DNA of 46,285 bases from Roseomonas sp. Its GTDB lineage: Bacteria; Pseudomonadota; Alphaproteobacteria; Acetobacterales; Acetobacteraceae. The translations under genes were made by a program, and so were the position numbers. The stretch lies in NCBI GenBank assembly GCA_020249865.1, contig JADCEV010000024.1, positions 1 through 46,285 on the forward strand, written 5' to 3'. Under the pieces are notes generated by a model. The model was not told the origin of the DNA. It did not search any database and worked only from the letters and a program-made list of their open reading frames with translations. Position 1 is the stretch's first letter; each line of letters starts with the position of its first letter. Shown one piece after another: positions 13,275 through 23,786 of the stretch.

Positions 13275-13412
13275 GCGGGGTATCTGATCATTATCGGCAT
13301 AAAGACCGAAAGCGGCGCGCATGCGCTGGCGCAGTTTGAGGCTGGCTTGGCTTTGTTGACGCGTTTCCGCGTGAGGCCGGGGATTTGGCCTTACGCCCCA
13401 AAGGGTCTTGCC

Positions 13413-14603
13413 ATGCCGCTTGCCGAAACCTCTGCCGATCCCAGGGCGATGCCGGATTTTCTGCGGCTGGTGGGCGCTGATCTTTGGACCAAGCGACTCG
13501 CGGATTTGGGGCGCCGTGCCCAAACGGGCGCCTTTCAGGGACGCGCCATGCAGCATCGCCACGCCTTGGAATTTGCACTGGCACGCGCCGCGCACGGTAC
13601 GGCGCAGGGCAGCGCGGAACGCCGCGCGTTGGGCTTTGCCGCGGAAGCGGTACGCCTGGCCAATGGCCTGCCGGAAGCGCGGCGAGACAAGCTGCGCGCT
13701 GCCATCACCCAAGGGCTGTCCGGTGAGGCAACGCTGATTCCCCTATTTCATCTGCTGCGCTCAGCCGCGCTTTATCGCGCGCAGGGTTTTGAGGTGCGCT
13801 TTTCCGGCCTTGCGGAAGATAGCGCGCATGATCTGACCATCAGCCGTGGCGGCGCTGTCGCGGAAGTGGTGTGTGAAACCATCTCCGCCGAGGAAGGCCG
13901 GCCGGTGCAACGCGGGCATTGGTATGCGCTGATGGATAGCGTCAATCCCGAATTGCAAACCTGGCTTGCCGCGCATCCCGGCCGCTATGTGCTGCGCATG
14001 ACGCTGCCCGATGGGCTTTCCGGCCCTGACAAGGCAGCCGAATTGCAGCGGCGCATCATGGCGATGCTGGCGGCTGAGAAGCGCCAGGATAGCAGCGCGG
14101 ATGCGGTGCTGAAGCTTGACCCGCTGGTGCTGGCGGGCGCGCAGGCCGATCCGCTTCCCGGCAGGCTGCGTCAGCAATTCGGACCAGAGGCACATCTGGC
14201 CGTGACCGGCGACCCCGCCGGTGGATCGGTCTTCGTGCTGGCGGCGCGCGCCGGTCAGGAAAACAGTATTTCGGACGCGGTCGCCACGCGCATGGCGGGT
14301 GCTGCGGGTGCGCGGCTATCGGGCGCAAAGCCCGGCATTGTTTCAGTGTTTATCGAGGATATGGATCGCGCCGAATGGCGCGGCTTGCGCGATGATCTGG
14401 CCCTTGAAGGCGCGGTGCGCCGCTTTTTGGCCGGTCACGCCGCGCGGCGCGTGGTGGCGGCTGCCTGTTCCTCGCGCGCGGAGCTTTTCGGGCTGGCGCC
14501 GCCTGATGCAGTGACGGGTGGGGAGCTGCGTTTCCGCAACCCATCCCACCCGGCGGCCAAATCCGCTGCTCTGGCGCCCGCCATTCTTTCGACGAGCGCC
14601 TGA
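13413..14603 (+). CDS. Conserved-looking protein of unknown function with nuclease-like core
   Basis: 396 residues from the ATG at 13413; the frame is open to a TTG at 13347, but AAGGG lies upstream of the ATG. I do not recognise the family. Residues 100-165 look like a restriction-endonuclease-type core: helix EATLIPLFHLLRSAALYRAQ, strand FEVRFSGL, D140 (AHDLTI), then strand AVAEVVCET with E151 and E155. In the PD-(D/E)XK pattern D140 and E151 would be metal ligands, but the usual lysine two residues after E151 is a valine. There is no signal peptide or membrane segment. It converges on the antiporter gene with 12 bases between. Fold assignment is a weak inference. Confidence 0.6.
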   Translation: MPLAETSADPRAMPDFLRLVGADLWTKRLADLGRRAQTGAFQGRAMQHRHALEFALARAAHGTAQGSAERRALGFAAEAVRLANGLPEARRDKLRAAITQGLSGEATLIPLFHLLRSAALYRAQGFEVRFSGLAEDSAHDLTISRGGAVAEVVCETISAEEGRPVQRGHWYALMDSVNPELQTWLAAHPGRYVLRMTLPDGLSGPDKAAELQRRIMAMLAAEKRQDSSADAVLKLDPLVLAGAQADPLPGRLRQQFGPEAHLAVTGDPAGGSVFVLAARAGQENSISDAVATRMAGAAGARLSGAKPGIVSVFIEDMDRAEWRGLRDDLALEGAVRRFLAGHAARRVVAAACSSRAELFGLAPPDAVTGGELRFRNPSHPAAKSAALAPAILSTSA

Positions 14604-14615
14604 GCCAGAGGGGCG

Positions 14616-16319
14616 TCAATTCGCCAAGACCATGGCGAAATAACCAAACACCGTCAGCAAGACGCCGGAGACCGCATAGGCCACCGGGAAGCCGATCCAG
14701 GGCACATTTGACCCGATTTCCACCGCGGCTTCGCGGCATGGGCCGGAATGGCTGCGCGCACCGGCCACACCACCCATCAGCACCGCCGGGTTGAACTTGA
14801 AGACGTAAAGGCCAAGCACCCAGACCAGAATGGGCGGCAGGCTGCAGGCGATGAAGCCCAGTACGAAAATCTTGAGCGCCAGCATCCCCGTCAGCTGCGC
14901 CAGCAGCGAATTGCCCGCATTGATGCCGACAATCGCGACAAACACCACAAGGCCAAGGTCTTCCAGGATATTGCGCGCCGCCGCCGGCGTATTGCCGAAG
15001 AACCGCAGACGCGAGGTGAGCGAGGATACAATCACCCCTGAGACCAGCAGCCCGCCCGCATTGCCAAGCCCGATATTCGATCCAAAGGCCGGGAACTCAA
15101 TCGCGCCAATCAGGAAGCCGAGGATCATGCCGAGTGAGAGCGTCAGCAAATCCGTCCCCGTAGAGGGACGAATGACGCGGCCAAAAGCCTCCCCGATTTT
15201 CTCGACCGCGCTTTTGAGGCCGACAATCGTCACCACATCCAGGCGTTGCAGCGTGGTATTCGTGCCGAGCGGAATCGGCACGCCGGAACGTTCAATTGCC
15301 AGCACCTGTACTTCATTGGCCCCTGGCAGGGCGCGCCATTCCTCGCGCGTTTTCTTCAAGGTGTCGCGGTTGGTGACCAGGATTTCGGCACGATCAAGCG
15401 GCAGATCAAGCGCGGTGCGATCCGCAACCTCTGGCCCGATCAGCCCCATCTTATCCGTGAGGCCCGTGAGCGTGCCGCCAAGCGCGATGATATCGCCAAG
15501 CGCCAGTGGCAAATCTTCCCGCGCGCCAAGGGCCGTGCCATCGCGCACGATATTGACGAAGCGGTATTCCGGATTTTCGCGCAGCATATCGGCCATGGTG
15601 CGGCCAACCCAGCCGGGATTTTCCAGCCGATAGGCGCGCAGGCTGCCCATGGTCCAGCCGGAAAGCGCTGGCGCATCGCCACTCGCGACGCCATGTTCCT
15701 TTTCATAGGCACGCGCCGCTGCACGCGCATCAATGCCCCACCAGGTCGGCAAATACTTGGTGATCAGGATGATGCCGACCGTGCCCCAAAGATAGGTGAT
15801 GCCATAGGAAAGCGCGATCATGGCGCTGACATCGCCCGCGCTGGTGCCTGCCGGCAGGGTAATGGCGCCAGATGTCACGGCCTGTTCAGCGGAACCAATG
15901 GCCGCCGACATGGTTTGTGACCCGGCCAGGATGCCGCCCGCCGTGCCGGGCGGCAATTCCAGAAACCGCACACCAAGCACGACAATGGTCAGGCCACATA
16001 GGCAGGAAACAATGGCGAGTGCGGTGAATTTGATGCCATCGCCACCAAGGCTGTTCACGAAGGAAGGCCCAACGCGCAGCCCAACCCCATACATGAACAG
16101 ATAATAGAACAGGCTTTTGGTGAAGTTATCGAGTGCGAGCTTCTCGCCATAGACCGAAGCCCAGACCGAAAGCCCGCTGCCCACGATGATGGCGGAAGCC
16201 ACCATGCCAAGCCCATAGCCCGCCACGCTCTGCCGACCGAGCCAAACAGCCAGACCTACTGTCAGGAACAACAGAATGAAGGGGTTGGTCGCCAGAAAAT
16301 GGAAGAATTCCTGCAACAT
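14616..16319 (-). CDS. AspT-family (AAEx) amino-acid:anion antiporter
   Basis: 567 residues, near the length of aspartate:alanine exchanger AspT (about 540). Two related membrane halves (about 5-190 and 395-565) flank a cytosolic part holding two TrkA-C/RCK-C-like domains (about 225-380). This is the AspT/YidE/YbjL duplication architecture. Each half carries the family's small-residue motif: GTAGGILAGSQTMSAAIGSA and GGVAGARSHSGPCREAA. Such carriers swap an amino acid for its decarboxylation product. The gene starts 12 bases after the stop of a PLP decarboxylase, so both are surely co-transcribed, and the exchanged pair is probably that enzyme's substrate and product. Whether that is aspartate/alanine, ornithine/putrescine or another pair cannot be read here. 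Confidence 0.85.
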   Translation of the reverse strand: MLQEFFHFLATNPFILLFLTVGLAVWLGRQSVAGYGLGMVASAIIVGSGLSVWASVYGEKLALDNFTKSLFYYLFMYGVGLRVGPSFVNSLGGDGIKFTALAIVSCLCGLTIVVLGVRFLELPPGTAGGILAGSQTMSAAIGSAEQAVTSGAITLPAGTSAGDVSAMIALSYGITYLWGTVGIILITKYLPTWWGIDARAAARAYEKEHGVASGDAPALSGWTMGSLRAYRLENPGWVGRTMADMLRENPEYRFVNIVRDGTALGAREDLPLALGDIIALGGTLTGLTDKMGLIGPEVADRTALDLPLDRAEILVTNRDTLKKTREEWRALPGANEVQVLAIERSGVPIPLGTNTTLQRLDVVTIVGLKSAVEKIGEAFGRVIRPSTGTDLLTLSLGMILGFLIGAIEFPAFGSNIGLGNAGGLLVSGVIVSSLTSRLRFFGNTPAAARNILEDLGLVVFVAIVGINAGNSLLAQLTGMLALKIFVLGFIACSLPPILVWVLGLYVFKFNPAVLMGGVAGARSHSGPCREAAVEIGSNVPWIGFPVAYAVSGVLLTVFGYFAMVLAN

Positions 16320-16331
16320 TTGGCCCTCTCC

Positions 16332-19043
16332 TCAGCGCCGCTTTGCGGCGCCAACGGCATCCGCACGCAAAAGCTTCAGCCCGCGTTCACGTTCATAGCC
16401 GTGGATTTCCTTGACATCGAGCTTGCGCATGAAATCGATCGTTTCCTGCGTCAGTACCTGGCCCGGCACCATGATCGGGAAACCAGGCGGATAGGGAATG
16501 ACGAAATTGGCCGAAATCATCTCAGGCCCTTCCTTCAGGCGCTTGTCGCATTCCGCGCCGAACAGGGGGACATATTCGCATTGCTCGGCGTGATAGGCAC
16601 CGAAGAAGGCGCTCCGCATATCGCCTTCGGGCGTTGTTTCCCCGGCATCGGTCCGGAAGGCCGCATGGAAACGGCTGAAATTCGGCAAATCCGGCACATC
16701 GGTCATCAATGACTTCACGCGCGCATCAAAGGCGCTGCGCGCCTCAGGCCCGCCCACGGACAGGCGCTTTTCAATCTCCTGACTGATTTCGACCAGCACG
16801 CGGATCAGATGCGCCGCGTCGCTCCGCGTATTGTTGATGTTCGATTGCAGCAGCACCGAATTGCGTGAGGTCTTGTTCAACTGGATATTGTACTTGTCAG
16901 CCAATAGCCCCTTGAATTGCGTGCCATCATAGCCGGCCGTGCCGCAGACAAGCGTCATGCGGGTCGGGTCCAGATAGAATTCATCTTCCCTCATGGCATG
17001 GACGATATTCGCCCAGGTAATGCCGGGTTTGAGGTAATCCACAAAGCCCGATTGGCGATATTCCGCCGGGATCATCTCATCCGCGCCAAGGATGCGGAAG
17101 TATTTGGAGATCAGCGGATGGCGATTGACCATGCCGCGGATCTTGAGCGCGATTTCAATCGCGTTCATCACCAGCCCATAGCCTTCAAGCTCCATCTGCC
17201 GGCGCGCGACATCAAGGCTTGCGATCAGCTGCTGATTGGGGCTGGTGGATGCATGGGTGAAGACCGCTTCGTGGAATTGCGCTTCAACCGTGTGGAAATC
17301 CACATCCTTCACTAGCAGCATGGAGCCCTGGCGGATGGATGACATGGATTTATGCGTGGAATTCGTCTGATAAACGCGCAGCCTGATCTGGCGCGGGTCA
17401 GGGATCAGCCGCGTTGACAGCAGGGTTTCATCGGATGGCGCATCGCCCAGCGCGGCCTTTTGCTGTTCATAGGCCGCAACCGATGCCGGATCATGCATCC
17501 AGGCTTCGATTTCCGCCGCCGCGCCCATCGCCGTTCGGGGGCGGAGCAGCGGCGAGAAGCGCGCAAAGCCGGACCAGGCTTCGTCCCATAGGAAGATCAG
17601 GTCAGGCTTGATGGCAAGGCATTCTTCCATCACCCGGCGCACATTATACATATGGCCATCAAAGGTGCAGTTCGTCAGATCGAGCATTTTCAGCCGATCC
17701 AGCCGCCCTTCCGCCTTCAGTGCCAGCATGGCGCGCTTGATGGTGGAAAGCGGTACCGCGCCATACATGGAATATTGCGTAAGCGGATAGGCTTCCACGT
17801 AAAAGGGCTGCGCGCCGGTCAGCACCACGCCGTAATGGTGTGATTTATGGCAGTTGCGATCAACAATGATCACATCGCCTGGTGCGGTCAGCGCCTGCAC
17901 CGCCATCTTGTTGGAGGTGGAAGTGCCGTTGGTGACGAAGAAAACATGATCAGCACCAAAGGCGCGCGCGGCCATTTCCTGCGCGCGTTTGATATTGCCG
18001 GTGGGTTCCAGCAGGCTATCAAGGCCGCCCGTGGTGGCGCTGCTTTCGGCCAGGAACAGGTTGATGCCGTAAAATTCGCCCATGTCGCGGATCCAATCGG
18101 ACCGGAAGACGGATTTCCCGCGCGCAATCGGCAGCGCATGGAAAGTCCCGATCGGGCGCATGGCGTATTTCTTCAGATTGTCGAAGAAGGGCGTTTCATA
18201 GCGTTCCTGCACGCCTTCCAGAATGGCGAGATGCTGTTCCAGCAATTCCTCAACGCCATAGAAGATGCGCCGGATGCTGCCCGTGGCGGGATCGCCGGCC
18301 AGGGTTTCCACGTCCTGATCGGACATCAGATAGATATCCAATTCGGGCCTGAGGCGCTTCAGCCCCGCGGCCAGCTTCAAGGCAGATTCTTCAGGGGAAC
18401 TCGGTTCCGGCAGCGATGCGGTGAGTGAGCGCAGCACGGAAGCATCATGGCGCGACCGATACGGGAAGCCTTCCACCAGGATCACGGCCGCGAAGGCCGG
18501 ATTGGCGGCGGCGGCACAAAACGCATCTTCGAAGGAACCGACAAACACCGCTTCATAGACAAAGCGATCTTCCTTGCGGCGGAGCTTGCGCAATTCATCC
18601 GCCAAGGCGGGCCAGCGCGCCGCTGGCTGGTTGGACACCACCAATACCTCAAAATACGGGCGGTGATGCCCGTGATCGGCCATGGTCGGCGGCAAGACAT
18701 CCGCAACCGCATCGGCCGGCCCTTCATCATGCACATCCCATTCGCCGGGGCGTTCCCGATAGGCGCGCGTCAGCAGGGCGCCGGAAATGCGCCGCAGCAA
18801 GGCAACCGCGCCCGCCGCATCATCGCGCGCCACGCGTTCCTGCAGGCCAGCGAGCAGGCTATGGCTTGGATAGGCGAAGAATTCCTCGGTCGGCAGCAGC
18901 CGGGCCAGCTTTTCCTCAACCGCCTTGCGGTCGGCCTTGCCGCTGGCCCAGGCCTCGGCACTATGGGTCAGATCACGCCAGGCATCATTCCGGCCGGCAT
19001 GGATCATGATGAAACGGTCGATCTGGACGGGTTCGGTGGTCAT
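16332..19043 (-). CDS. Orn/Lys/Arg decarboxylase-family PLP enzyme, long form
   Basis: 903 residues against about 710-755 for the biodegradative Lys/Arg/Orn decarboxylases it resembles. The PLP core is clear: TNGTSTSNKM (371-380), stacking H399 in DRNCHKSHH, D487 in LWDEAW, and Schiff-base K565 in TNSTHKSM, followed by FTHASTSPNQQLIASLD. A family-type C-terminal domain ends near YPPGFPIMVPGQ. The first 290 residues are longer than the usual wing domain, with a receiver-like alternation at 130-265. About 50 extra residues (500-550) lie between D487 and K565. AAGGAAG precedes the ATG. Together with the AspT-type antiporter 12 bases downstream it forms a decarboxylation/antiport unit. The substrate is not determinable; no partner antizyme or regulator is adjacent. 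Confidence 0.88.
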   Translation of the reverse strand: MTTEPVQIDRFIMIHAGRNDAWRDLTHSAEAWASGKADRKAVEEKLARLLPTEEFFAYPSHSLLAGLQERVARDDAAGAVALLRRISGALLTRAYRERPGEWDVHDEGPADAVADVLPPTMADHGHHRPYFEVLVVSNQPAARWPALADELRKLRRKEDRFVYEAVFVGSFEDAFCAAAANPAFAAVILVEGFPYRSRHDASVLRSLTASLPEPSSPEESALKLAAGLKRLRPELDIYLMSDQDVETLAGDPATGSIRRIFYGVEELLEQHLAILEGVQERYETPFFDNLKKYAMRPIGTFHALPIARGKSVFRSDWIRDMGEFYGINLFLAESSATTGGLDSLLEPTGNIKRAQEMAARAFGADHVFFVTNGTSTSNKMAVQALTAPGDVIIVDRNCHKSHHYGVVLTGAQPFYVEAYPLTQYSMYGAVPLSTIKRAMLALKAEGRLDRLKMLDLTNCTFDGHMYNVRRVMEECLAIKPDLIFLWDEAWSGFARFSPLLRPRTAMGAAAEIEAWMHDPASVAAYEQQKAALGDAPSDETLLSTRLIPDPRQIRLRVYQTNSTHKSMSSIRQGSMLLVKDVDFHTVEAQFHEAVFTHASTSPNQQLIASLDVARRQMELEGYGLVMNAIEIALKIRGMVNRHPLISKYFRILGADEMIPAEYRQSGFVDYLKPGITWANIVHAMREDEFYLDPTRMTLVCGTAGYDGTQFKGLLADKYNIQLNKTSRNSVLLQSNINNTRSDAAHLIRVLVEISQEIEKRLSVGGPEARSAFDARVKSLMTDVPDLPNFSRFHAAFRTDAGETTPEGDMRSAFFGAYHAEQCEYVPLFGAECDKRLKEGPEMISANFVIPYPPGFPIMVPGQVLTQETIDFMRKLDVKEIHGYERERGLKLLRADAVGAAKRR

Positions 19044-19335
19044 AGCGCTTCCTTTCTTGATTGTTTGCCAAGCCTATAAACACCAGCCTATCGGATTATT
19101 GATTTACTGCAAATTTTCATCACGCCTGATGACTAAGCCTCAGTCAGGATGTGGCGCATGGATGCGGCCTGCCCCTCAGGGCGCATGCCACTTATTGCGT
19201 TACAAAAATTTTTCAATCGAAACAGATGTCTGGCAGCATGGTGGGGGCTTGCAGCCGACCATGATCAGGAATGGACGCCAATTCATGTGACGCGCCATTG
19301 TGTAAACTTCGATTTACGCGCGGGTGGCTCATCCA

Positions 19336-19357
19336 GGGGGCGCGGAAGCGCGCCCCC
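19336..19357. repeat. GC hairpin with GAAG tetraloop
   Basis: GGGGGCGCG (19336-19344), loop GAAG, CGCGCCCCC (19349-19357): a perfect nine-base-pair stem. It sits four bases from the next hairpin, between the decarboxylase leader and the end of the crotonase gene. No T-run follows on either strand. Confidence 0.6.
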
Positions 19358-19360
19358 AGA

Positions 19361-19394
19361 GCACATCCGCCGCGCGGTTACGCGGCGGATGTGC
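19361..19394. terminator. Perfect 14-bp hairpin downstream of the crotonase gene
   Basis: GCACATCCGCCGCG (19361-19374) and CGCGGCGGATGTGC (19381-19394) pair perfectly around a six-base loop CGGTTA. It begins 26 bases after the stop of the minus-strand crotonase gene at 19421. Position fits a terminator or 3'-end stabiliser, but there is no U-tract on the minus strand, so intrinsic termination is uncertain. Confidence 0.5.
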
Positions 19395-19420
19395 CTTGTA
19401 TCAATGCTCCTGGGCGGCTT

Positions 19421-22722: not shown

Positions 22723-23442
22723 TCACCCGAAGAATAGTCGCCACAACAAGGGCAGCAACAACGCGGTGGCGAGTGCATTCAAGCCCATCGCCAAACCGCT
22801 GAAGGCGCCGGCCACTTCATTCACCGAAATCGCCCGCGCCGTGCCAATGCCATGCGCTGCCGTGCCAATCGCAAGCCCGCGCGCGCGCCAATCCGTGACC
22901 CCGAGCAGCGTGAGCAAGGCCGGCCCAAGTGCGGCACCGACAATGCCGCTGCAAATGACAATAGCGGCAGTGAGTGAGGGCAAGCCGCCAATCCGTTCCG
23001 CCACCCCCATCGCCACCGGCGTGGTGACGGAACGCGGCGCGAGTGATGCCGTGACCTCTGGCGCGGCGGAAAACGCCAGCGCCAGCGCCACCCCAGCAGC
23101 AGCGGCGAAAACACCCCCCACAACCACGGAAGCAATCGCCGCGGGCGCTGAGCGCTTCACCTGCCGCCATTGCCGCGCGAGTGGCACCGCAAGCGCCACC
23201 GTCGCAGGCCCCAACAGGAAATGGACGAATTGCGCCCCTTCAAAATAGGCGCGGTAATCAATGCGCGCGAGCAACAGGCCCCCCGCCAGCAGCGCCACCG
23301 CGAAAAGCACGGGATTCGCCATGGGGTGAAACCGCGCCGCACGCGCCAGGCGCTGCGCCGCCAGCCAGGCGAGCAAGGTGGCGGTCAGCGCGGCCAGTGG
23401 CTCCCGCGCCAGATAGACCCAAATCTCGGCGAGGTTGGTCAC
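22723..23442 (-). CDS. lrgB: LrgB/CidB-family membrane protein
   Basis: 239 residues and about six to seven membrane helices with the LrgB hallmarks: FLLGPATVALAVPLARQW, the RSVTTPVAMGVAERIGG motif (a strong family signature), and GTAAHGIGTARAISVNEVAGAFSGLAMGLNAL. In Firmicutes, Lrg/Cid proteins influence murein hydrolase activity and cell death; plant and some bacterial homologues transport glycolate or pyruvate. Either could apply here. The start overlaps the lrgA stop by four bases, so the pair is translationally coupled. It ends three bases from the convergent MFS gene, leaving no room for a terminator between them. Confidence 0.92.
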   Translation of the reverse strand: MTNLAEIWVYLAREPLAALTATLLAWLAAQRLARAARFHPMANPVLFAVALLAGGLLLARIDYRAYFEGAQFVHFLLGPATVALAVPLARQWRQVKRSAPAAIASVVVGGVFAAAAGVALALAFSAAPEVTASLAPRSVTTPVAMGVAERIGGLPSLTAAIVICSGIVGAALGPALLTLLGVTDWRARGLAIGTAAHGIGTARAISVNEVAGAFSGLAMGLNALATALLLPLLWRLFFG

Positions 23443-23786
23443 GGGTCAAGCCGCCGGAGCAGTGCCTGCGCCAGCAAACCCGTGACGCCAATCGCTGCCA
23501 AGGTGCCGGCCAGGATCGCGAGCGATAGCGGCGCCCAATCCTTCGCCAGCACAGGCAGATACAGCACCACGCCAACGCCTGCCGGCACGAACAACAGACC
23601 AAGATTGGCCAAAAGCCCATCAGCGCTTTGGGCAAGGTCACGCGGTGCCTCCCCGCCACGCAGCAGCAGCGCCACAAACAGCAAGGCCATGCCGATCACC
23701 GGGCCGGGGACAGGCAGGGATAGCGAGCGCGCCAGCACCTCCCCGATCAATTGGCAGCAAAGCAGTATGGTCAGGCCAGCGATCAT
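23439..23786 (-). CDS. lrgA: LrgA/CidA-family holin-like membrane protein
   Basis: 115 residues with four membrane helices. It carries the family segments LPVPGPVIGMALLFVALL and LLANLGLLFVPAGVGVVLYLPVL. It is the small partner of LrgB and the two genes overlap by ATGA. Family members have been proposed as holin-like proteins or as part of a small-acid transporter with LrgB. The ATG at 23786 lies 20 bases after a terminator for the upstream binding-protein gene, so the pair probably has its own weak promoter or depends on readthrough; I saw no LytSR-type or LysR-type regulator beside it. Confidence 0.9.
   Translation of the reverse strand: MIAGLTILLCCQLIGEVLARSLSLPVPGPVIGMALLFVALLLRGGEAPRDLAQSADGLLANLGLLFVPAGVGVVLYLPVLAKDWAPLSLAILAGTLAAIGVTGLLAQALLRRLDP

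What the first reader, a model, noticed from the sequence alone, without database searches (positions are those of the whole stretch)
14616..19043. Decarboxylase plus AspT-type antiporter: candidate new amino-acid decarboxylation/antiport system
The known AspT partner is a different, aminotransferase-like aspartate 4-decarboxylase, and known Orn/Lys/Arg decarboxylases usually pair with APC-type antiporters (PotE, CadB, AdiC). Here an Orn/Lys/Arg-family enzyme is joined to an AspT-family exchanger 12 bases apart. This unfamiliar pairing implies either a new substrate for the enzyme or a new exchange pair for the carrier, with the same logic of proton consumption and charge-moving antiport.
Basis: partly seen in the sequence, partly recalled or inferred. 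Interest (0 to 1): 0.7.

Follow-up and report, generated by a model that had tools for sequence, protein, structure and literature searches.

The report
Unusual amino-acid decarboxylase and antiporter pair
Two neighbouring bacterial genes, an enzyme that probably strips carbon dioxide from an amino acid and a membrane exchanger that probably swaps that amino acid for the product, form a conserved acid-resistance-like pair whose substrate is unknown and is more likely an acidic amino acid such as glutamate than lysine, ornithine or arginine.

Summary
In detail: a 903-aa Orn/Lys/Arg-fold decarboxylase (DC, 19043..16332, minus) and a 567-aa AspT-family carrier (16319..14616), 12 bp apart, on a contig of a Roseomonas-like genome. 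The pairing is conserved: in 250 genomes of the order, 26 of 26 DC places have an AspT directly downstream, against 0 of 41 other OKR-like places; of 80 named DC loci, 72 have AspT adjacent on the same strand.
DC groups with Rv2531c, whose activity is unknown, not with Lys/Arg/Orn decarboxylases. All 110 aligned DC-type sequences keep the catalytic residues but have Gln for the PGE glutamate (recalled as the distal-amine ligand) and two extra arginines: a diamino-acid substrate is unlikely.
The genome has no AsdA over cut-off, GAD-family enzyme or PanD. The only two clade-A-like carriers found without DC lie in glutamate decarboxylase (GadB) islands.
Best reading: an AspT-coupled, proton-consuming module for an acidic amino acid, probably glutamate. 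Substrate untested. New variant of a known kind.

The parts
16332..19043 (-). Rv2531c-type, Orn/Lys/Arg-fold PLP-dependent decarboxylase (DC), 903 aa; predicted PLP lysine K565, with H399 and D487; subfamily-specific R308, K310, R571, Q862
14616..16319 (-). AspT-family antiporter of clade A, 567 aa; R82 aligns with R76 of Tetragenococcus halophilus AspT
16320..16331 (-). 12-bp spacer with a Shine-Dalgarno-like GGAGAGG; suggests translational coupling
19044..19420 (-). intergenic region upstream of DC; presumed promoter region; no Rfam match and no sigma-70-like consensus site found

Best explanation
A two-gene precursor/product module. The carrier imports an amino acid; DC removes its alpha-carboxylate with PLP, consuming one cytoplasmic proton and releasing CO2; the carrier exchanges the product for new substrate. 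With a monoanionic substrate and a neutral product the exchange moves net charge, as in AspD/AspT or GadB/GadC, so the cycle would raise internal pH and help make proton motive force. The substrate is most likely an acidic amino acid: L-glutamate to GABA first, L-aspartate to beta-alanine second. Shown: gene anatomy, families, conserved pairing, residue pattern, genomic context. Inferred: substrate, exchange stoichiometry, acid-resistance role.
For: Pairing: 26 of 26 DC places (24 of 250 genomes) have AspT directly downstream on the same strand, 15-146 bp between aligned places (the aligned DC stops before its stop codon; 12 bp between the genes in the window); 0 of 41 other OKR-like places have AspT within 5 kb. 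Of 80 named loci, 72 are adjacent on the same strand. DC is found beside AspTs of several clades, so the association outlasts change of carrier. Dedicated carrier: AspT-A is a clade of 50, all DC-adjacent; AsdA occurs in 0 of 46 AspT-A loci against 21 of 34 others; 17 of 24 DC genomes have no AsdA over cut-off. Substrate: all 110 aligned DC-type sequences, window included, carry Q862, R308, K310, R571 where four E. coli enzymes have E, G, V/T/E/T and S, with K565, H399, D487 kept; Rv2531c has the equivalents of Q862, R308 and R571, not K310. GadB link: of 19 AspT places at 60% identity or more, the 2 without DC (63%) lie near GadB: 239 bp to its longest ORF (466 bp between aligned places), and about 1.8 kb, both on the opposite strand; these islands share a MarC gene and a small gene of no Pfam family with several DC islands. 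A third genome has GadB about 110 bp upstream of another AspT. The own genome has no GAD-family enzyme, PanD, or AsdA over cut-off. Acid context: HdeA/B chaperone and carbonic anhydrase by one Rhizobium locus.
Against: No activity is known for any close relative; the review passage read says the Rv2531c study did not clarify its activity. The E-to-Q and Arg changes are shared by paralogues without AspT, so they speak against a diamine substrate for the whole subfamily but do not single out the AspT-linked substrate. Their place in the pocket rests on sequence motifs and recalled structural roles: the monomer model is weak there (pLDDT under 50 at 284-348, 563-573, 851-854). DC-linked carriers of two other clades score over the aspartate-alanine antiporter cut-off (559 and 637 against 546.95), which fits aspartate too; so does a GadB-linked one (639). 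The GadB link of AspT-A rests on two genomes of one genus, where GadB has another AspT directly downstream. Of 80 loci, 7 have no AspT beside DC and 1 has it on the opposite strand; in G184 (DC 55-56%) the AspT is also on the opposite strand, some 0.6-0.9 kb away. HdeA/B was matched only at the locus the query came from, among L004-L088. DC and GadB genomes overlap in 1 (about 1.2 expected by chance), so no anti-correlation.
Confidence: 0.55

Rival explanations
1. DC is an L-aspartate alpha-decarboxylase making beta-alanine, and AspT-A exchanges aspartate for beta-alanine, a small change from AspT's aspartate/alanine exchange.
For: AspT is known for aspartate uptake (PMC9508256 passages). In rhizobia DC often sits near aspT-aspD genes. 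DC-linked carriers of other clades pass the aspartate-alanine antiporter cut-off. Own genome has no PanD. The altered pocket fits any acidic substrate.
Against: GadB, not AsdA, is near the two AspT-A-like carriers without DC (PanD was not looked for there). In 4 of the 7 DC genomes with AsdA, an AsdA has its own adjacent AspT. DC is patchy (8 of 22 same-genus genomes), odd for a sole beta-alanine source.
Confidence: 0.2
2. DC is a conventional basic-amino-acid decarboxylase (Lys, Orn, Arg) and the AspT-family carrier has changed to a basic amino acid/amine pair.
For: Fold and catalytic residues are those of Orn/Lys/Arg decarboxylases.
Against: Glu of the PGE motif replaced by Gln in 110 of 110, two Arg gained; NCBIfam Lys/Arg/Orn models far below cut-off (171 of 968, 161 of 1167, 141 of 1310 bits); T. 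halophilus AspT does not take lysine as substrate (passage).
Confidence: 0.08
3. The pair is metabolic rather than an acid-resistance cycle: DC makes a product that the carrier exports or exchanges for another purpose, from a substrate not considered here (a neutral or modified amino acid).
For: Non-AspT paralogues sit in CN-hydrolase/'biotin carboxylase'/C45-type clusters that look biosynthetic. None of the seven neighbours of the pair scanned in the window is an acid-stress gene.
Against: In the AspT-linked clade the constant neighbour is an antiporter; island genes shared with GadB loci.
Confidence: 0.17

Closest known systems
Rv2531c (PDB 9n0n, 9n0o, 9n0p), Mycobacterium tuberculosis probable amino acid decarboxylase
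   Same: Full-length match (901 bits with a profile of 22 sequences; TM 0.87 to the target chain); same Gln and two Arg at the changed positions
   Different: No substrate known; its genomic neighbours were not examined here; K310 not kept
AspD/AspT: aspartate 4-decarboxylase and aspartate:alanine antiporter
   Same: Same carrier family and fold (8xw5, 9oqy); decarboxylase-antiporter logic (passages)
   Different: AspD is an aminotransferase-like beta-decarboxylase (recalled); window AspT scores 372.6 of 546.95 on TIGR03802 and is about 31-33% identical to rhizobial AsdA-linked AspTs; no AsdA over cut-off in own genome
CadA/CadB, AdiA/AdiC, SpeF/PotE
   Same: Orn/Lys/Arg-fold decarboxylase with dedicated antiporter for proton consumption (passage)
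   Different: APC-type antiporters (recalled); E. coli enzymes keep PGE/SGE and lack R308 and R571; 0 of 41 other OKR-like places near AspT
GadB/GadC glutamate acid resistance
   Same: Proposed chemistry; GadB lies beside AspT-family carriers in three genomes
   Different: DC is from another PLP group; GadC is an APC carrier (recalled)

Membership tests
Orn/Lys/Arg decarboxylases (PLP fold type I, OKR_DC_1) | OKR_DC_1 domain and PLP-site residues (Lys, His, Asp) | tested here: met
   PF01276 236 bits; K565, H399, D487 in 110 of 110 DC-type sequences and in 4 of 4 E. coli enzymes
Orn/Lys/Arg decarboxylases acting on basic amino acids | Glu of the C-terminal PGE motif (role recalled) | tested here: not met
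   Gln in 110 of 110 DC-type sequences, Glu in 4 of 4 E. coli enzymes
Named LdcC/LdcI, AdiA, SpeF models | NCBIfam cut-off | tested here: not met
   171.4 of 968; 161.4 of 1056; 161.2 of 1167; 141.4 of 1310 bits
Rv2531c-type decarboxylases | full-length similarity and fold | tested here: met
AspT transporter family | duplicated Asp-Al_Ex domains, central TrkA_C, AspT fold | tested here: met
   all 5 Foldseek matches with E 0.001 or better are AspT structures
Aspartate-alanine antiporter equivalog (TIGR03802) | score over 546.95 bits | tested here: not met
   372.6 bits; AsdA-linked ones score 688 and 713, DC-linked ones of other clades 559 and 637
AspD-AspT system | AsdA partner gene | tested here: not met
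   no AsdA over cut-off in own genome
Decarboxylase/antiporter acid-resistance systems | conserved decarboxylase-antiporter gene pair | tested here: met
Decarboxylase/antiporter acid-resistance systems | decarboxylation, electrogenic exchange, acid survival | not testable with these tools
   needs bench work

The most novel reading that the evidence does not exclude
An Orn/Lys/Arg-fold enzyme that evolved into a glutamate (or aspartate) alpha-decarboxylase by reversing the charge of its substrate pocket, coupled to a dedicated AspT-family Glu/GABA (or Asp/beta-alanine) antiporter: a third AspT-coupled proton-motive decarboxylation module beside AspD-AspT and GadB-AspT, which would also suggest an acidic, or at least non-basic, substrate for the unassigned Rv2531c family.
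Probability: 0.4. Interest if true: 0.75.

Novelty: new variant of a known kind. Interest (0 to 1): 0.6.

Why it matters
It would add a decarboxylase family to the acidic-amino-acid acid-tolerance systems, found here in Roseomonas relatives, other genera of the same GTDB family, and rhizobia; it would show that AspT-family carriers are modular partners of at least three unrelated decarboxylases; and it gives a concrete, testable substrate prediction for the Rv2531c-type enzymes, whose structure is solved but whose activity is unknown.

Tried and rejected
Rejected: chance adjacency. Rejected: that the carrier belongs to an AsdA elsewhere in the genome (none over cut-off; AsdA over cut-off in 7 of 24 DC genomes). 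Rejected: that AspT pairing is a habit of all OKR-like enzymes (0 of 41) or of all Rv2531c-type enzymes (0 of 12 regions of paralogues at about 42-53% identity, several cut short by contig ends). Led nowhere: Rfam (0 matches); sigma-70 scan (0 sites; terminators 5 against 4.6 in shuffles); conserved upstream DNA in eight sequences, window included (only a short AT-rich core and the ribosome site); AspT plasmid search (14 records at E 1e-60, all under 60% identity); active-site view from the DC model (mean pLDDT 69.7, low at the loops); literature on the PGE glutamate (0 papers), so its role is recalled; AspT structure papers (0). A DC-versus-GadB exclusion was looked for and not found. A first AspT gap list and tree carried some wrong ORF starts; one search replaces them. 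In one search two comparison clades were picked too small (D 4 of 22, other DC-linked 6 of 8); only its clade-A columns are used.

Full report
What is there. The window is the whole contig C72 of a 3.65-Mb, 154-contig genome; its nearest named relatives are Roseomonas MAGs at 96-98% identity in the decarboxylase. On the minus strand an ORF of 903 codons (19043..16332, DC) is followed after 12 bases by an ORF of 567 codons (16319..14616, AspT). The spacer reads as a ribosome site directly after the stop codon. DC matches OKR_DC_1. AspT has two Asp-Al_Ex stretches and a TrkA_C domain. An AlphaFold2 model of AspT (mean pLDDT 80.6) matches only AspT structures at E 0.001 or better (5 of 5).

What the enzyme is. 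The best solved relative over its full length is Rv2531c (733 bits with one sequence; 901 bits with a 22-sequence profile; Foldseek rank 1, TM 0.87 to the target). LdcI, AdiA and ornithine decarboxylases match mainly in the PLP domain. NCBIfam models for LdcC, LdcI, AdiA and SpeF score far below cut-off. A review passage says the Rv2531c study did not clarify the activity (PMC12910592, passages only).

Pocket pattern. In 110 DC-type sequences (window included, some of them near copies) against 4 E. coli enzymes, K565, H399 and D487 are invariant in all; Q862 replaces the Glu of the PGE/SGE motif, R308 replaces a Gly of the PGHxGG loop, and R571 replaces a Ser six residues after the PLP lysine, in 110 of 110. 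Rv2531c has the same Q and both R. That the Glu contacts the distal amine of the substrate is recalled from structures of Orn/Lys/Arg decarboxylases; two paper searches for it gave nothing. The DC model is too weak at these loops to place them, so that R308 and R571 line the pocket is inference. The change argues against a diamino acid and is compatible with a side-chain carboxylate. It is shared with paralogues that have no AspT.

Pairing. In 250 genomes of the order, DC at 56% identity or more occurs at 26 places in 24 genomes; all 26 have an AspT directly downstream on the same strand. Of these, 17 have an AspT of the window's clade (75% or more identity) and 9 an AspT of 30-33% identity. 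Of 41 other OKR-like places in the same sample, 0 have an AspT within 5 kb. In 385 genomes of the class, DC at 56% or more occurs in 3 (own, G361, G184) and AspT at 60% or more in 2 (own, G361), both beside DC; in G184 the AspT is on the opposite strand. Of 80 named DC loci (chosen by DC only, best 80 of 204 found): AspT-A downstream 46, other AspT downstream 23 (16 of them with one upstream too), upstream only 3, opposite strand 1, none 7. The counts are not independent: many genomes are close relatives and some appear in both samples. In a tree of 92 DC-type and 4 E. coli proteins the AspT-linked ones group together (5 label changes against 18.5 in shuffles, 0 of 500 as low); ten paralogues without AspT form one group with support 80 and sit, where seen, in clusters with a CN-hydrolase, a protein annotated 'biotin carboxylase' and a C45/AAT-type protein.

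Carrier clades. In a tree of 181 AspT-family proteins, E. coli YbjL and YidE included, the window's clade A holds 50 sequences, all DC-adjacent. Other DC-adjacent carriers fall in clade B (downstream of DC in rhizobia, second carrier after A in several Roseomonas relatives), in a clade of eight loci of the same GTDB family, and in a clade shared with AsdA (28 sequences: AsdA and DC 10, DC 15, AsdA 3). AsdA is in 0 of 46 AspT-A loci and 21 of 34 others (loci are at most 14.7 kb). Only 7 of 24 DC genomes have AsdA over cut-off, and in 4 of those 7 an AsdA has its own adjacent AspT. So the AspT-A carrier is not AsdA's partner. On TIGR03802 AspT-A scores 372-378, DC-linked carriers of other clades 559 and 637, a GadB-linked one 639, AsdA-linked ones 688 and 713, cut-off 546.95: clade A has diverged most, while the other DC-linked carriers would be named aspartate-alanine antiporters. 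AspT-A keeps R82, aligned with R76 of T. halophilus AspT (numbering counted by me, consistent with G62 and P79 of PMC9508256), but rhizobial AsdA-linked carriers have Gly there, so this is not diagnostic.

The GadB link. Of the 19 AspT places at 60% or more identity, 2 have no DC (G566, G414; 63%). Both lie in an island with a glutamate decarboxylase (TIGR01788, 518-519 bits, cut-off 380), on the opposite strand at 239 bp from its longest ORF (466 bp between aligned places) and at about 1.8 kb, and GadB there is followed by another AspT. These islands share a MarC gene and a small gene without Pfam match with DC islands of Roseomonas relatives and a few others. A third genome, G447, has GadB about 110 bp upstream of an AspT and also a separate DC-AspT pair. 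In all, 3 of 13 GadB genomes in the order sample have GadB beside an AspT. This is why glutamate is my first candidate. DC and GadB genomes overlap once, about as chance predicts, so there is no exclusion to lean on.

Own genome. It has no GAD-family enzyme, no PanD, no AsdA over cut-off, one OKR-like place at E 0.001 with DC as query and a second AspT on contig C45, 32% identical, with no decarboxylase seen in the 4.7 kb held.

Mechanism and limits. Decarboxylation plus exchange of a monoanion for a neutral amino compound consumes a proton and moves charge, as described for AspD-AspT (PMC9508256 passages) and, with basic amino acids and dedicated antiporters, for E. coli (PMC8503589 passages). 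The acid-resistance role rests on analogy, on one locus with HdeA/B chaperone and carbonic anhydrase, and on occurrence in what look like acetic acid bacteria (PQQ-gene-like neighbours in L149 recognised from memory; Pfam shows only a beta-lactamase-fold domain for the PqqB-like one). The pair is patchy, in 8 of 22 same-genus genomes, and slightly lower in GC (0.60-0.61) than eight neighbours (0.62-0.69), consistent with gain and loss.

Novelty. Searches of the held library for AspT with lysine, ornithine, arginine or glutamate decarboxylase, for Rv2531c, and for aspartate-alanine antiporter with decarboxylase returned no listing that describes this pair; one search listed 12 of 176 papers. 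Most subscription papers and all bioRxiv preprints are not held, so this is limited.

Noticed in passing
L160:6607-9831; L147:5444-8566; L148:9070-12336: Glutamate decarboxylase (GadB, TIGR01788 over cut-off) directly upstream of an AspT-family carrier in three genomes: an apparent GadB-AspT pair.
   Followed up: partly
L087, L133, L139, L140, L142: Paralogous DC (about 47-50% identity) in a recurring cluster with a CN-hydrolase, a protein annotated 'biotin carboxylase' in L087 (no Pfam match in L142) and, in several, a C45/AAT-type protein; looks like an unknown biosynthetic pathway.
   Followed up: partly
L020, L025, L028, L030, L031, L032, L034, L131: Rhizobial islands with AsdA, two AspTs and DC together, some with porin, DUF2092, cax or DUF2950/DUF3300 genes.
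   Followed up: partly
L168:5625-8402: AspT-family carrier next to an asparaginase (PF00710).
   Followed up: partly
L003:1489-3183: Second AspT of the window's genome (contig C45), at the base of clade B, after an rsmI-like gene, without a decarboxylase beside it in the 4.7 kb held.
   Followed up: partly
window 13347-14603 (+): 418-aa ORF convergent with AspT, no Pfam or NCBIfam match; a counterpart of about 403 aa in 5 of the 80 related loci.
   Followed up: no
L149, L151, L152, L154, L155: A gene of about 366 aa with a lipoprotein-like start directly upstream of DC in five loci of the same GTDB family; no Pfam match for the one scanned.
   Followed up: partly
window 22723-23786 (-): LrgA-family gene followed by an LrgB-family gene.
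   Followed up: partly
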